A DNA stretch of 49,672 bases from Phlegmacium glaucopus. Lineage: Eukaryota; Basidiomycota; Agaricomycetes; Agaricales; Cortinariaceae. The position numbers and the translations under genes were made by a program. The notes under the pieces were generated by a model. That model was not told the origin of the DNA. It made no database searches and was given only the letters and a program-made list of their open reading frames with translations. The stretch lies in the NCBI GenBank assembly GCA_015039465.1, contig MU130477.1, positions 88,635-138,306 of the forward strand. The letters are read 5' to 3'. The first letter of the stretch is position 1; every line of letters begins with the position of its first letter. Shown in pieces: positions 13,246 to 49,672 of the stretch.

Positions 13246-14320
13246 TGGAGTCAAAGCCACTGGCAAAGATCAGCTGCAATTAATGTAATCTGGGTACTAT
13301 CTAAAACACTGTACATATATATCTTAGTTTTATTGCAAGTCAGAGTGATCAGCTCGGATTGAGTGTACATTTGAACAAGATGAAATTTTGAAGAGAATGG
13401 GAGCGCATCAGTCCCAATTCACTCAAAAGAGCACATGATCTTTGTTTATGGACCTCACAACGTCTCAACATCAATTAATATATATCTTAGTTTTATGGCA
13501 AGTCAGAGTGATCAGCTCGGATAGTGTACATTTGAACAAGATGAAATTTTGAAGAGAATGGGAGTGCATCAGTCCCAATTCGCTCAAAAGTCACGAGCAC
13601 ATGATCTTTGTTTACAGACCTCACAACATCTCAACATCAATTAATATATATCTTAATTTTATGGCAAGTCAGAGTGATCAGCTCGGATTGAGTGTACATT
13701 TGAACAAGATGAAATTTTGAAGAGAATGGGAGTGCATCAGTCCCAATTTGCTCAAAAGAGCACATGATCATCTTTGTTTACGGACCTCACAATGTCTCAA
13801 CATCAACCTCAGTGAAACTTGCTTCCCTCTTCAACGTCTGCAAGGAAAGTGTCAGGCCTTTTCTTGCTTCTTTTGGCGACTTATGGTTCGATAGCTTGCG
13901 CTCACTTGATATCTTCTGTAATAGAGTGAGATATTGTTGCAGATATCGCATGCCATGGTGAGACAAGGCCGTGACCCTCAAGGTACAAGATAATTTTGTT
14001 GGTCTGGTGGCGAATCTGATTGACACCATACTAGTGTTGTCATACCATTTTCTCGTCTATTGGGGGAAGCGACACCCCGACAAGATGTTACATTCCGTCA
14101 TACGTTACTCCGGTCCGACTCCGTCGGAGTTGTCTCCGGTAGTCCGTACTCCGTTCCAGTACTTTCCCTTGTCTCCGGATCTACTCCTCCTATGTCCAAC
14201 TCCGAGACTTCTCCGTATCATTCCAGCTCTTCCGACGTTACTCCAAACTCATTTCCACATCTTCGTCACAACCACTATTTCTTTGTCATCACTTTCCCAC
14301 TATCAGTCAGCACACCAGCT
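13246..14320. repeat. Three tandem 163-165-bp units downstream of the transposase, then unassigned DNA
   Basis: Units begin at about 13316, 13478 and 13643 and end near 13806. Each holds TATATCTTAGTTTTATTGCAAG-like sequence, GTCAGAGTGATCAGCTCGGA and GACCTCACAA. They differ by a few substitutions and small indels and look non-coding. From 13,807 to 14,320 there are fragments of frames and TCCG-rich sequence that I cannot assign. Confidence 0.75.
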
Positions 14321-16490
14321 ATGGATTATTCACCCCAAGAATGCAGGACCTTCCGGGAGCAGAACGCAGCACTTATATTTATATTTTATATTTCGGTTGC
14401 TATTCCTTTTATTATTTAAGTACTCGAAACTTGTATGTTTTCCCTCAGTTCGAATATCGACTTAGTTTCCCACTCTTGGTCTTCCTCTAAGTTCTTTGCA
14501 ACTTCCGGTTCCGTTCCGCTCCGTCTTACTCCGAAATTAGGACACGAAGGTTCTGGGTAGCACAGCACATAAGCTGAGGCTAAGTCCTATCCTTTCCGTG
14601 ACTCCGTTCTGGTACTCCGTCCGTTACTCCGTCCGAAACTCCGGAATAGAGTTCTCGAACTTAACACAAGACCTCCAATGACTCAACCTCATGTCCTGTC
14701 GTCTTGCTCTTTAGAAGCCTCATCTACTTTGTACTCGGTCTTCACATGGCTTTGTGAGTTATCAAGTACTTTTTCTCCTTTCAATGCTAATATTATATTT
14801 TTAGCATATATGGTCAGTGTACTAGAGCACCAAAGTCGCCTACTGCATATCTTATCAATCAATTTTTTGATACTGCAGGTATATTCTAACCAACTAAATT
14901 ATCTTTCTGGATTAGCTCTACAGAACCCAACGAGTTCCAAGTCCCACCAGTTCCACCTCTACCCTCATCTTATGCTCCAATGTTACCAATATCTGCGAAT
15001 CTCGCTGATGCAGACTCGTTCAGAAGGGACCTTCCACCACTTCCAAACCATCCAAGGGCTCAGCTTGGTTCTCAAAGCTCCTGGTTAACCTCTTCAAACG
15101 GATCGCATACAACAATCACTTCTTGGTTGTACCCAACAACCCACTATGATGATACAATTCCTACTGCCAGTACTCCAGATTTTCAAACTGCCTTGGCAAC
15201 TGCAATCATGCATCCAACTATACCTGCCCTAGTTGATGCCCAAGTGCTTTGCCATTGACGGTTGTACAGATATCTCTCATTCTTTCGGTAACATTGACAT
15301 CTCCACTCCTGGTTCTTAATATTTTGCGATTTTTGGTTTATTTGACATTCATGGACCAGGCAAATCCATCCAAGCCTTCACGCCTGAAAGTTTGCCTCCG
15401 CACAAATGGTCTCATGAATGATGAATACAAGTGCTAGTCTAACGGTTGAAGGTCATCGCAGCGGTGATGTCTGGCTCAGCAAAGGCGACACCATTGATGG
15501 TAAAGGAAAGCTTGGGTGAGTGATGATGTTGCTATCAGCCAAGCCTAAATTAATGGTTGGTCCTACCACCTGAGGACTGCAATGAATTTCGCAATCATGA
15601 TTGCGCAAAGACATTACTCTGAGTTGGCCCTTGCTCAGACCGTTGTTGTACCTGGTGGAGCGACCACAACCACCAACCACGATTCAGCTGGGGCCGATGT
15701 TTTGTTAAATACGACCTACCGGTGTTACCAAGAACAAATGTACAAGTCATTCGTCCCACCTTCCAACTTGGTCTGCATCCTCGATTAATGGTCCCGCAAT
15801 GTCTAAAAGTCAAGACGGCTTCAGTATCAGTCCTCCCCCTTCCTCCAATGCTCCCGAATGTCAGAGCATCTCACTTCGCTATTGGCAACCTTGGAAACAA
15901 GACTGAATAATGCCGAGGGGAATTGCAGATTGAATTAGAAGAAAATGAAGTCGGACAGCAGGTGCTCAATTTTTGTTTATGCCTTCATTTCATGCTGAAT
16001 CTATATTTTAGGCTCAGGTCTATTGAATCTGCCCTACGTGAACAGTTAAAGCATTTAGACGAAAAATACGGCACCCTGAAAGACGTGAAAGAACGTAATA
16101 AGGGTATGTTTTCCGTATTTTGACCATTCACCACAATGCTAAATAAATACTTGAGCCAGCTTTAACAATGCTGGAGGGCCCCACCCCTAGAACGCGTCGA
16201 AATGGATTTTAATAAAGAAAACAAAAACAAAAGAACGCCAGTGCCACCGCACAAGAAATGTTGAATCTCAACTATTCCAAATTCCAAGAACCTGATCTCT
16301 TCTACTGCAAAAAGCCAAAAATCACAACAAGATCGAAACCGGTGTCATCAACCTCGAGGGTGAATCCAAGGTTGCTCTCACTTTCGGCCAAATAAATGAC
16401 TCAGAACCTCCTGGTGCTCATGCCCACGTCGCCCTAGTACCAGTGTTTGACCATCGCCAACGCCAACTTGAAGTATGGAGCATTACTTAG
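14321..16490 (+). pseudogene. Third, decayed coding region of the Plavaka element (Ser/Pro-rich, coiled coil)
   Basis: Several stretches look coding but do not join into one frame with the splice sites I can see. A start-like MDYSPQEC is at 14321. A proline-rich part with FQVPPVPPLPSSYAP lies at about 14,930. SKSQDGFSISPP occurs near 15,800. A coiled coil with LLATLETRLNNAE and REQLKHLDEKYGTLKD lies at about 15,880-16,110, with one apparent frameshift between its halves. A final segment with INLEGESKVALTFG is at about 16,340-16,480. I do not recognise the family. It could be a gene with introns I mis-assign rather than a pseudogene. Confidence 0.35.
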
Positions 16491-30464: not shown

Positions 30465-32617
30465 TTATGAATGGATACGGATTAAATATTTCACTTGATT
30501 ATCATTGAGAAATGCTAAAAAATATTGAACAGCTAACACATACTCGTCGTTTGGATTACCCATATTTCGAAAGCATTCAAGCGCGGCATGAGCATAAACT
30601 ATACCATCTACATGGTATTTGCCAGACCTATTTTTATCCTCGAAAAATTCGATAAGTAAATGTCGATATGGTTCCTCATCAACCAGATAAACGGGATATT
30701 CTACTCCCTGAGGGGGAAAAATGACAGGGACTCGAGAGGTTCCTGAAATCAGAGAGAACCAGGACGAATTCCACGGAAAAGGAAAGAATATCAGCCCCGC
30801 AATATCAACGTTGCTTCCGTTAAGTTTATATTCATCGAGCTTTGTAGTGAGATATTGGTCCAAAAGCAATCGGAAGCGGCTCGAGAGTTCTTTAGCCCCC
30901 GTGTCAGCCTGAGATTCATGGATTAATTTCGAAGTGAAGAATATCCATAGGGACATAACAGACCTTGTACAGCCAGTCAAATAAAAGCGGGATGGGATAA
31001 TACCAGAGGCGCTCCTTGATTTCACACAACGGCTGAAGGTCAGAGACTTGCATGAGATCGTTTTTGAGATTGGCAGAGTCCGTTGAAGCTCGAGGACAGT
31101 GATATAAGAAAGAAAATTCTAAGTATTCTTGAGCAGATCCTTCCGACCGTTGGGGACTTCGCTCTATTGCATTTATGGACGGCGTACTGACATGACGTAG
31201 GCACTGCTGGGTTAGATCCGTATGAAATGCCTCTTCGTCAATATAATACCTTGCAGATCGTAGTGTGTCAACAAGGAAATCTTGTAGGGAAGCGTGGATC
31301 ACTTTGATCGACAATTCACTTGTCCTGGGTGGAGGAATATAAAGGATAGAGTGGAGTTCGGATAAGCAAAGGTGGACATCTTCTTCGTCCAAACCAAGTA
31401 GATCTGCCACAAAACTTGGCGTGACTGTCTGGGTGTATGCCCGGAGCCGGAAAAACAAAAATCCGAATATCTTTAGCGTACTGGCCCAATCGTCAACGCA
31501 GGAGAGGATATGGCTATACAATGCATCCAATTCTTTGTACGGCATGTCGCCGTCAACAGGTATTAACCCTATGATAACGTCCAACCGCTTCATGGGCCGA
31601 TGATTAGGAGAATCCAGATATTTCATGACAGTCGAAGCGTAAATAAACTGGCCCGAAGACTTTCGGACCAGCCGATCAATGATCTCCGCAGGTGGCCAGG
31701 ACTTGGGAATATAGACTGCAAGTGGGTGGTTCTCTTTAATTTCCTCGAATCGACTAAGGAGAAATACCTTGATGTCGGCGTCTGGTTCGTACGAGTCGTC
31801 TAAGACAATGTGATGAGAGGCGTGATGTTTGTTCAGAAGATTGAAGGCATTCCGAATATGTGGCTCAGGACGGCTGGCGACGAGAAGGATGAGTGGGACT
31901 GGGATGCTAAGAAGAGCTGTCGCAAGTAGACGGATGATGGAGGATTGAATGACAGGACCATGACATTCGTCAAGACCGTCTATAACGATAAGCCTTGGCC
32001 ATTTCTTCCTAACGGCCGGATTGACAACGGCACATGCGTTTTTCAAAGGCTGGATGATGAGCGATTCTATTTGGGTGTCCAAAGACTTGTCAAATACCGC
32101 AGGGTCGCTTTGGACGGCGGCTTCAACGTATGTTCGAGTCGCTGGAATGGAAAGGGCAAGCTGATATGCAATTGACGCAATCAGATGTTTCTCACTATTC
32201 CGTGATTGGGATGACCTAGAAAAGAAAAAACTGGCGACGAGGAGGCCCAACTTTGCGCAAATCTCCGCAATTGTTTGAACGATAGCTGATTTTCCAGCTC
32301 CCGCAGACCCATAAAGCCACAAAACATCCTCTAATTCGTCGATGTTTTGTATCCACTGCATAATTTCTGCTAGGACGGCCTTACGGGTATTTGGATGGCA
32401 TTTGGGTGCATCGAAACGTTCTCCGGAGTCATGGAAAGCGCCAGTCGCGGTATTTGCATGGAGAATCTTGAAGCCTGTTCAGCATTAGATACGATTTTCA
32501 GGTTATCTAAACGTTTAAAATGAGTAGGAACTCGAACTGACCTTTTGATGTGGGTGGTGCAGTGGTCTGTACGAATGTGCCACCTTGGATGATGGTGTTT
32601 CGGAACCGTTTAAACAT
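30465..32617 (-). CDS. NACHT-domain NTPase (STAND-type fungal protein)
   Basis: Three exons (32617-32542, 32474-30964 and 30908-30465) encode 676 residues. The N-terminal segment has the family pattern AFHDSGERFDAPKCHPNTR. The NACHT NTPase follows with Walker A GSAGAGKS (residues 81-88), Walker B LIVIDGLDEC (187-196) and a sensor-type ASRPEPHIR. A winged-helix-like region and a C-terminal part without recognised repeats complete it. STAND NTPases switch between ADP- and ATP-bound states and are linked in fungi to non-self recognition and cell-death control. No effector domain (HET, patatin, HeLo-like) is visible at the N-terminus. The start ATG follows the promoter that is duplicated at 28,365. 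The 3' end is uncertain. Confidence 0.9.
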
Positions 32618-45397: not shown

Positions 45398-47038
45398 GGA
45401 GGGCAAGACTGCATTCTGTTTGGTTTGTGCCGAGCAACGGCATGTGCTCTCCTCTCCAGATGTATTATATAATTTTTAAGAAATCGGTTCAGTGGCAGCT
45501 GAAGAGCGACGAATAGTACACAATGCGCCTCAGTACGAGGAAAGTGATAGAACGCCTGTATCATAAATTAGGGGTCTTGGCCTTTTGAGAGGATTCAACA
45601 GGATTCTATGGACCCAGCGATCTCAAAGTTTGCTCAAAGTAGCAACATATACTTAGTACCGATGATTTACCGGCTATGGCCGGATTCAGCTTGGTCATCA
45701 CCCGTTTTGGCGCTTCGCGTCGCCGCCTCGCTGTGTCTGGTACCTCTCTACTCCCCTAGCGCCGCGTATGATGTTCGTTGACATTAGAGCAGAGACTACT
45801 AGCAGACTAGAGAGCACGTAACTAGACTGGACGGAAAATTTTAAAGGTTGCAGTTAGTGAGAGCGAAACTGCGAAGGTTAGGCCCGTATACGGGTCTGCG
45901 TTTTAAATGTTGTACAAGTCCAAACCTTAGTCTAACCTTGCTCTACAGTACTTCGACCGACTCCTTCCACGACACTCACCCCTTGTACGTTCCATACACG
46001 AGGTAGCTGTTGACACACGCGGAACGAACCCGATTGAAACCAGTTACAACCGAGTTCGAGGTCTAACGGTTCGGAGACACCGAGAAACACTGCGGGGTCA
46101 CGGACACCAGTACATGGCGTAGAGCTGCTCACAGGTTCAGTGGTGAGTGTCCGACGGTCTACATGCGACATGCGGTAGGGGAGAAGGAGGTACTACCAAC
46201 TACTACTAAAGGGGATATCATCACAGACACATGACCGTTACTTGTTAGGGAGACTCGATATGTACCACACCGTCCCTCAGTGATGTGCCAGTCAAATGTA
46301 TCATAATCTACTGTCGATCGATCCCCATAGATATGACGGAGCGTTACACTGTACGTTAGCTTTCAGATAACTGGACGAATTTCGGATAACTGTAGGAATT
46401 CTCTGACTCACTATCTATATGGGGATACTGTTGCGCTGCGTTCCGTGTTTCCTGAGAAGTATCCAAGTTTCCAATCCAAGTATCCAATCCGATTTAATTA
46501 AACTCATGGGCTTGAGCTTGAGTCCAAGTAGTCAGGTACCATTTAACTCGCATTTAACTCGACGAAGTAGAACAATTTGGCATTTAACTTGATCAACCAC
46601 AGTGTGACAACATTTAACCCACATTTAACTTGAACTAAATGGCATTTAATAGTCCGGAATTCGTGAATTAGTGACTTTAGCTCGTGAATTGTTGAATTAC
46701 GGGTACTGTTTGACATGGCATGACATAATCGTCACTGTGCAGGTACGTTACAAGGGGTGAACGTTTCGTGAAGTTGTTTGGAGGTTAAAAATAACTGAAC
46801 ATCGAACTGTAACGGTGTCACATCATGTCATGCCTTTTACATTAACATTCGATCGATTGACATAAAGAATGGAGAGACATGACAGGAACATCGTATATCT
46901 CGCACGGACGGTATACTAGCTCTATACACTAGCGGCGGAGCCAGTTTACGGATCATGTATTTTTTCACTCTGTACCGACGAGAGGGCTTTCTTGTGGTCG
47001 AGTACTCGAGAACTTCGAGACTAGAGGAGACCGGAGAG
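45398..47038. other. Unassigned region containing the left junction of the wrong-polarity segment
   Basis: No gene is found in normal reading or in complement reading. CATTTAA-containing short repeats occur at about 46,540-46,650. Somewhere in this stretch the sequence changes from normal polarity to complement-without-reversal. A possible zone is the GC-rich patch at 45,710-45,780, but I cannot place the junction. Confidence 0.4.
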
Positions 47039-49451
47039 TACCGACGTTTTTTTCCCGATATAAGACTGGGAAGGCCTCCGTGACTGGACTTCGGTTTCCA
47101 TAGACCTTGTTTCTTTGGGTCCTTACGGTGTAGTTCGGAGCTTTGGGATGTCTTTTAGTTTCTCAGCTCGGCACGACTCGTACCAGCAGGCTTTTCCTGT
47201 GCCCTATTAATACGTCCGATGCATCTTGCTCCTTTCAGTAAGGAACTCCTAGAACACCGACTTTCTGCCCGTTTACAACTATCCCAGCTACCGTTGAGTT
47301 TTCAGAGTTTAACACTACAAGGTCTACTACTATAACTGCAACTGAACGACCTCTTTCGCAAGCTGTTGGGTGGTTTGTTTATAAGACACTACCACTACCT
47401 CGACATGGACCAAGTCTTTACGGAATGGCTCTTGTCTCCCTTTTCGTGGCGTCGACCCTAGGTTCCTCGCAAACGGCTGATAACCCTGTTGTACACTCAA
47501 AATTTGGGGTTCCTGACAGTACTGAGTACTATTTACGACTTGATTGGCGGTAACAGAGGGTGACGTCCCTACCACTGTGGATACCACCGGGTATATCGAA
47601 ACTGTTCCTCTGCCTCTGACAGTTCCCTACAGGTCGTGCGAGAAGGTGGTAGTTCAGTATGTAGTTTCATTAACCAAGGTTTAGCCCTCGATTTCCTCGC
47701 CGTCGCCGCCCAGCTGTGGTACGTCTCCGTTACTCCTAACTTCTCGACTTTTTTTAGTACCTTACCAGTCTTTGACTCATAGGTAGGTTCAGGAACTGCA
47801 GTCGACGTCTGAGTGACCACCTAGAACTGCTTAACTACGAACGACAGCTCGTGTGATACTACGCTCGTAAATACTGAAGTCCTAAGTGTGACACCTGTTC
47901 CATAGTAGGGGGTGTGGCCAGTCACAAACCCACGATTTGCTGACTAGATGTTTAATAAGTCCTTGAAACTCGAGTGGCCAGACGTTCGTGCGCTGTAGTA
48001 CATGCCGAAACTCCCAGGTCGTGGTATGAAGGTAGGAATGAAGTTCCACGTAGAACTTTTAGCGTTCCCCACCGTCGCGTTCGACCCTGTGCTACCTGGC
48101 GAACTCTCATCCACGTACAACGTACAGTACCACGAGACCAATGATTGTTACGACTTGCCAGCAGTCCGTTGTGGATGTTGTAGATAGTCGTCCTGTAGGA
48201 GCTCTAGCTGTACATGTGGGTAGACGCTTTCACCTAACGAGAGGAGTTTCCAGCGGAGCCAGCACTTGACCTCGGACTACTGATGTATAAAGGTGTGAAG
48301 AGCGGGTTACCGTAGGACCTGGGACGAGCTGTCTACTGTGTGCTGTACCATGTCTAAGAATAGTGATCTAAACGCAGTTCACGGCCGGAGTGTTTCGGTA
48401 TGTGGTGCGTGACGAAGGCCTCCCCACCGCGGGTCATGTCCAAATACATACGTGGTTAACCCTCTGCCACCAGGAACACGTTCTAGGCGACCACCCCACC
48501 CACCCGCTAGCCTCTTGTACATTCAGGAACTTCAAGCGGTATGTAGTGGACACTGGAAGAACCACTACTAGTACACAGTTTGTCCACCTATGCGACTACT
48601 TCATAGAGCAACTGAGGGACGTTTCGATACTCTTACTGATACCGTTGAGGGAGACAGGCCACGTCTTACTCGGACTGGTCTCAAAGTACCCTCTTGTGCG
48701 TGAGGACTTCGGTCAGTGACAGGTGCTTAAAGCGTACAAACCATCAAGATAGTACAGTCGCGATTTCTGCTGAAGCTGGTGATGGTGTACGAGGGTTTAG
48801 CGACCAGAAAGCTTGGGCTTACAACGAAGACGGGGGTACAGTTACAGGTGATGTCCCGAGAGTTAGTTCAGCTAGGGCTAGAAGGGATAAGGATAAAGAT
48901 GAGGCTCAGGTCAAGGCTGACGGAAGTGTTGAGACTGAGGCTCGACGAAGGTTGGACTCTCGCTTGTCCGTCGGTGAAACCAATGATGTTTGTTGAGTCG
49001 ACACCCGTGACCGTTCACATAAGGTGAACGACCCCAAACGTAAGGTCTAGACGGAGCCTCAGCTCCGTCGACCGCATAGCGTGAAGCGGTTACCATACTA
49101 CAGCTGGGGTTTTGACCTGCGCGAGACTTCCTGACCGGCCTGCTCACCAAGTTTCTGAGGTACTCTCCCTTTTGCCGGCGCTTTGCCAGGGTTGCTCGGG
49201 AATAACGAGTGCTTATACTGGACACTCAAACTCAGAAATGAGAACACAGAGTTTGGAGGTTGACTTGGAACCACGCTTCGAACCCACCGTGGGTACTGTT
49301 GAAAGAGCGGCGAATAGGCCTCCGGCTAAGGTGCTCCCAGTCACTAGACGAACTCCATTAAGCTCCGTTTGTGCCTGACGCGTCTTTTTCAGCTTTGACG
49401 TGTGGCCTCGTTTCCGTGTTGGTGTCAGGTCTCGACAGGTGTGGTATAACT
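47039..49451. CDS. Crypton-like tyrosine recombinase gene stored in wrong polarity
   Basis: Complementing each base but keeping left-to-right order gives six exons: 47039-47493, 47568-47900, 47962-48107, 48167-48519, 48585-49222 and 49280-49451. They encode 698 residues from ATG to TGA with no internal stop. All five introns are GT-AG (56-74 bp) and several have a branch-like CTAAC or CTGAAC before the acceptor. The protein contains KRTRDNYAGYVERGKSFL, KVHLENRKGWQRKLG, a catalytic-type THCFRRGGAQYRF (H393-x-x-R396), RWWGGWAIGEH and a candidate nucleophile Y436 in DTLMKYLVDSL. This is the H-x-x-R...W...Y order of tyrosine recombinases, and I recognise the family from agaricomycete Crypton-like proteins. 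A C-terminal part has IPDLPRSRGSWR and LKDWPDEWF. The strand is left blank because neither physical strand encodes it as the window is given. Confidence 0.9.
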
Positions 49452-49672
49452 TCTGTACTCATCGTACTCGTCATGCACTAACGGTAGAACGAAAGAAAGC
49501 ATAACATAAAGGATGGATACAAGCTCGGGCCCCGGAGGACGGTTTTTCCGACTGTTACAGCTCGAGGACGGTAAACGAACCCGAGCGAACAAGAGCAAGT
49601 TATCATGGTATAAAATAAAAGAAGTTGGATAAGTGAAGCATCATCATTAAGATTAAGTACATCATCGAATGA
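49452..49672. other. Probable 3' flank of the wrong-polarity gene
   Basis: Downstream of the mirrored stop codon to the window end. Complement reading shows a T-rich, 3'-UTR-like stretch. Nothing indicates a return to normal polarity before the window ends. Confidence 0.4.

What the first reader, a model, noticed from the sequence alone, without database searches (positions are those of the whole stretch)
47039..49672. A whole gene is present only as complement without reversal
Read normally, this stretch has only short, family-less frames on both strands. Complementing each base without reversing the order produces a 698-codon gene with six exons, five GT-AG introns, consistent phases (2,097 nt, divisible by three), a start and a stop. 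It also has recognisable recombinase motifs such as THCFRRGGAQYRF. Such agreement by chance is not credible. Antiparallel DNA cannot carry a gene in this polarity and no copying process is known to make it. The likely causes are an assembly or file-handling error (complemented but not reversed contig piece) or deliberate alteration. If it were shown to be physical it would be extraordinary.
Basis: partly seen in the sequence, partly recalled or inferred. Interest (0 to 1): 0.97.

Follow-up and report, generated by a model that had tools for sequence, protein, structure and literature searches.

The report
Gap-edge DNA written backwards in assembly
The last 3,856 letters before a gap in this mushroom genome record are a mobile element written backwards, as happens at other gap edges of the same assembly, most likely because gap-filling software left out one strand step, so the DNA in the fungus would be ordinary.

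Summary
Window 45817-49672 (3,856 nt, up to a 4,884-N run) is a mobile-element copy written in reversed letter order, in place. Its complement matches scaffold C240 of the same genome at 99.4%; as given it does not. Cutting exactly between 45816 and 45817 and reading the rest backwards gives one 4,037-position alignment with 120 of 120 letters right across the join; 21 neighbouring cuts give 74-86.

It recurs. At 6 of 16 gap edges examined such a tract touches the N run and one base-exact cut restores it. Mirrored probes of two dispersed repeats give 40-52 matches per search; a mirrored chaperonin gene gives none. A letter-order model found a seventh tract unprompted.

The genome is identified as Phlegmacium (Cortinarius) glaucopus. 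JGI's hybrid assemblies were patched with PBJelly, which extends contig ends into gaps it cannot close. Most likely a one-sided extension was complemented without being reversed; the tool is inferred. The hidden gene is an ordinary fungal tyrosine-recombinase-like gene.

The parts
45651..45816 (-). End of the mobile element in normal polarity; inferred original contig end at 45816
   Evidence: matches C240:354161-353996, minus strand, within a 171-nt match at 99.4%
45817..49672 (.). Mirrored tract: 3,856 nt written in reverse letter order, reaching the N run
   Evidence: read backwards in place it continues the match to C240:353995-350125 at 99.4%; the exact cut gives 120/120 letters across the junction
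47039..49223 (.). Tyrosine-recombinase-like gene, readable only in the unreversed complement
   Evidence: P0001 matches the complement in 5 pieces at 96-100% and the given letters in none; 343 homologues of its first 501 aa
49672..49672 (.). Last base before a 4,884-N run (C164:138307-143190); the far side of the run starts with another mirrored tract, C164:143191-144102

Best explanation
The stretch is a mobile-element copy that the assembly writes in reversed letter order in place, most likely because gap-filling software extended the contig end into an unclosed gap with sequence from the other strand and complemented it without reversing it. Shown here: 45817-49672 read backwards continues the element of 45651-45816 without a break; the tract touches an N run; the same pattern occurs at five more gap edges, on left and right sides alike. 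Inferred: that 45816 is the original contig end, that the extension came from long reads, and that the tool was PBJelly or something that behaves like it. The DNA in the fungus would then be a normal reverse-strand copy of the element.
For: Complement match to C240 at 99.38% over 3,872 positions. A single 4,037-position alignment after reversal in place, and 120/120 letters at exactly one cut against 74-86 at 21 neighbouring cuts. All six mirrored edges found by alignment have one base-exact cut (97.5-100% of 80 letters; next best at most 76%). Every listed mirror match of 40 nt or more in 310 kb (20 kb of it N) involves one of those six gap-touching tracts. Genome-wide: 61 and 66 first-look candidates for the two mirrored halves of one repeat (40 scored in each search; 40 and 52 matches), against 768 for its first half in normal polarity; 59 (40 scored, 43 matches) against 1,142 for a second repeat. 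Mirrored chaperonin gene piece: 0. Unprompted seventh tract at C1:20002-20975, with mirror copies at 99%. JGI used ALLPATHS-LG plus PBJelly for hybrids (passages of PMC7550596); PBJelly incorporates flank extensions and shrinks gaps it cannot cross (passages of PMC3504050).
Against: No source read here says that this particular assembly is a hybrid patched with PBJelly; that was said of hybrids as a class. No paper found describes such a bug (listings). At 10 of 16 edges no mirrored tract was detected (short ones without a relative could be missed), and whether any extension was ever written correctly could not be told. N runs could in principle be stretches withheld by the operators and not assembly gaps. 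Two mirrored 22-mers of bacterial rRNA found nothing in about 85,000 prokaryote genomes, so the error is not seen there. Gap adjacency of the mirrored repeat copies, and of the C1 tract, was not seen.
Confidence: 0.95

Rival explanations
1. A later file-handling step or a deliberate alteration of the record reversed this piece.
For: It would give the same letters at one place.
Against: Six tracts of 79-3,856 nt each run from a base-exact inner boundary to an N run, and mirrored repeat copies lie on dozens of scaffolds. By inference, that pattern needs knowledge of the original contig ends, which the assembly software had.
Confidence: 0.04
2. The mirrored DNA is physically present in the chromosome, made by copying with parallel polarity.
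For: None beyond the deposited letters.
Against: No known polymerase or recombinase makes it (established knowledge). The six tracts whose two ends were seen all stop at an N run, a feature of the record and not of a chromosome.
Confidence: 0.002
3. The gene in the complement is a chance resemblance.
For: None.
Against: 99.38% identity over 3,872 positions, 343 homologues of the predicted protein.
Confidence: 0.001

Closest known systems
PBJelly flank extension of gaps that cannot be crossed (PMC3504050, passages read)
   Same: Sequence is added to contig ends and a shortened N run is left; extensions can occur on either side of a gap
   Different: The passages read describe no polarity error; here the added letters are reversed in place
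Chiral (mirrored) DNA controls, 'sequins' (PMC6430799, passages read)
   Same: Same letter relation: reverse order without complementing
   Different: Those are synthetic by design; here it is an unintended error in a genome record
Fungal tyrosine-recombinase-like genes (Crypton-like; the name Crypton is recalled)
   Same: The hidden gene has 343 relatives at E<=0.001, 120 of them listed, many named Tyr recombinase or integrase by a source
   Different: Only its polarity in the record is odd; Pfam PF00589 stays below its cut-off

Membership tests
One-sided gap-extension artefact | Tract runs up to an N run | tested here: met
   6 of 6 mirrored tracts found by alignment touch an N run; for the seventh, at C1, the outer end was not fetched
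One-sided gap-extension artefact | Reversal in place restores colinearity at one exact base | tested here: met
   97.5-100% of 80 letters at one cut for each of 6 tracts
One-sided gap-extension artefact | Recurs across the assembly | tested here: met
PBJelly-specific error | This assembly was patched with PBJelly | tested here: inconclusive
   The paper states it for JGI hybrid assemblies as a class; which class this species fell in was not seen (main-text passages only; supplements could not be looked up)
PBJelly-specific error | The program version writes extensions without reversal | not testable with these tools
   no source code at hand
Tyrosine recombinase (hidden gene) | Catalytic Arg, His-x-x-Arg and Tyr (motif recalled) | tested here: met
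   R269, H399, R402 and Y442 are among the invariant columns of 9 aligned proteins chosen from the 120 listed; that these are the catalytic residues is inferred
Tyrosine recombinase (hidden gene) | Pfam PF00589 above cut-off | tested here: not met
   13.8 and 13.0 bits against 27.1; relative P0071 25.7 bits, also below

The most novel reading that the evidence does not exclude
A polarity bug in contig-end extension has silently put mirror-image tracts into many published hybrid genome assemblies, where no six-frame search can see the genes and transposons they hold, so repeat content and gene counts near gaps are understated across a whole generation of genomes.
Probability: 0.35. Interest if true: 0.6.

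Novelty: not a real feature. Interest (0 to 1): 0.38.

Why it matters
It turns an apparent impossibility into a concrete, testable data-quality fault. In this genome there are about 5-8 mirrored first-look candidates per 100 normal ones for two dispersed repeats (61 to 768; 59 to 1,142; only 40 scored in each). Homology searches miss such copies, and gene finders could call nonsense genes in them. The species was used in a comparison of transposon content and age (PMC7550596, passage). The test is simple: compare each gap edge with the unreversed complement of the rest of the assembly.

Tried and rejected
Letter-order model: cross-validated 500-nt blocks average +14.3 (sd 10.6, 7% below zero, 376 blocks). 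In the window all nine blocks from 45501 on are negative (-1.3 to -23.2; the last is partly N). Its best change-point, 45740, is 76 nt off the exact junction. Of the seven segments it listed with gain 15 or more, four hold mirrored tracts (C164 134375-144066, C222, C18, C1), one is a false alarm (window 14030-14714, gain 21.7, a normal-polarity repeat copy with 1,142 candidates), and two were not followed (C164:146584-147141, gain 20.3; C2:28914-29806, gain 16.4). At gap edges it gave little for the short tracts (gain 1.4 for the 79-nt tract of C222, 6.7 for the 131-nt tract at 168572).

Mirrored bacterial rRNA 22-mers in genome contigs: 0 and 0, without a positive control. The empty answer carries the tool's own caution; the copy number of that gene was not checked. 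Solved-structure search with the protein: nothing meaningful (best E 0.067). Paper searches for a report of such a bug: (listings only; one search returned no paper); none seen. Papers read in part: passages of PMC7550596, PMC3504050 and PMC6430799. Searches looked for the species' assembly.

Selection: of the 16 edges, the finding's own and the three at C222 and C18 were known from mirror matches; among the other 12, two are mirrored (143191, 168572).

Full report
WHAT WAS CLAIMED.

IS IT THERE? Yes. The given strands have no stop-to-stop frame of 120 aa or more past 45,000, while the unreversed complement has five. The spliced complement protein (first 501 aa) has 343 relatives at E<=0.001 among 7,997 scored candidates, 120 listed; the best is P0001 of Phlegmacium glaucopus at 98%. 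P0001 matches the complement of the window in 5 pieces (96-100%) and the given letters in none. In the whole genome 59 exon matches were found, none on C164.

WHERE IS THE REAL COPY? The window is C164:88635-138306 of a 60.5-Mb genome in 259 contigs. The complement of the tract matches C240:350124-353995 at 99.38%. C240 is 697,528 bases long, the length given for the contig of P0001, which identifies the species. The tract is not identical to C240 (9 mismatches, one gap of 15 positions), so it is, by inference, another copy of the same element and not the same piece used twice.

EXACT ANATOMY. As given, only 45651-45821 matches C240, on the minus strand, ending inside the element. Read backwards in place from 45817, the whole of 45651-49672 becomes one alignment of 4,037 positions at 99.4%. 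Of 22 cuts tried, the cut after 45816 gives 120 of 120 letters and the other 21 give 74-86. The right end is the start of a 4,884-N run. So the letters between 45816 and the N run are reversed as a block.

IS IT ISOLATED? No. I compared 309,672 bases (19,993 of them N) with their own unreversed complement. Every listed match of 40 nt or more involves one of six tracts, each touching an N run: C164:134451-138306, C164:143191-144102, C164:168572-168702, C222:68855-68933, C222:71779-72819 and C18:22406-25024. Each has one cut that restores colinearity with a relative: in that order 100, 97.5, 98.8, 100, 100 and 100% of 80 letters, the next best cuts at most 76%. For C18, the base at the N edge (22406) pairs with C164:901682 and the base past the tract (25025) with 901681: neighbours in the relative, 2.6 kb apart here. 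Two tracts lie left of an N run and four right. Of 16 edges examined, 6 are mirrored; 4 of these 6 were known or fetched because of mirror matches, the other two come from 12 unselected edges.

GENOME-WIDE. Two mirrored halves of a dispersed repeat gave 61 and 66 first-look candidates (40 scored each; 40 and 52 matches, on dozens of scaffolds), against 768 for the first half in normal polarity (40 scored). A second repeat gave 59 mirrored (40 scored, 43 matches) and 1,142 normal candidates. A mirrored piece of the TCP-1 chaperonin gene gave none (copy number not checked). The letter-order model also flagged C1:20002-20975, in a stretch fetched only as training DNA; its complement has an open frame of 250 codons, against 154 at most as given, and its complement matches C35 and C223 at 99% among 17 matches. 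Its outer end lies beyond the fetched stretch, so a gap there was not seen.

HOW IT LIKELY AROSE. The JGI paper that analyses this species says hybrid assemblies were ALLPATHS-LG drafts patched with PBJelly. The PBJelly paper says that if a gap is too large to assemble across, flank-extension reads are incorporated and the gap is made smaller. The anatomy fits such one-sided extensions, provided they were complemented without being reversed (or reversed without being complemented; the letters are the same). The program and version are inferred, and so is that the N runs are assembly gaps and not withheld stretches. Apart from the C1 tract, whose outer end is unseen, no mirrored tract was found away from an N run in the fetched DNA; fully closed gaps may therefore have escaped, but the sample is small.

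WHAT THE HIDDEN GENE IS. It belongs to a large mushroom family many of whose members sources name Tyr recombinase or integrase. Arg, His-x-x-Arg and Tyr positions are invariant in 9 members; the Pfam integrase model stays below cut-off. By comparison with the other copies, the element on C240 spans about 349734-354161 and has TAAGT at both ends, compatible with a Crypton-like element (recalled).

VERDICT. Real letters in the record, unreal polarity: most likely a systematic assembly artefact. It is worth reporting to the database holders.

Noticed in passing
C240:349734-354161 (L029/L030): About 4.4-kb element carrying the recombinase-like gene; the 5-mer TAAGT stands at both ends, perhaps the crossover repeat of a Crypton-like element.
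   Followed up: partly
window 14030-14714: Dispersed repeat with 1,142 first-look candidates in the genome in normal polarity and 59 mirrored ones.
   Followed up: yes
C1:20002-20975 (L020): Mirrored tract found by letter order alone; its complement has an open frame of 250 codons.
   Followed up: yes
window 30919-32478, minus strand: NACHT / NPHP3_N domain protein, as in fungal NLR-like proteins; arrays that look like WD40, TPR and ankyrin repeats (by eye) occur in other fetched stretches.
   Followed up: no
   Followed up: partly
C164:168057-168571: N run of 515; the relative has about 528 nt there (C164:91948-92475), so the N count fits the length left after the added letters.
   Followed up: partly
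C222:68934-71778: N run of 2,845 where the relative C240 has about 1,570 nt; the gap size is off or this copy differs.
   Followed up: no
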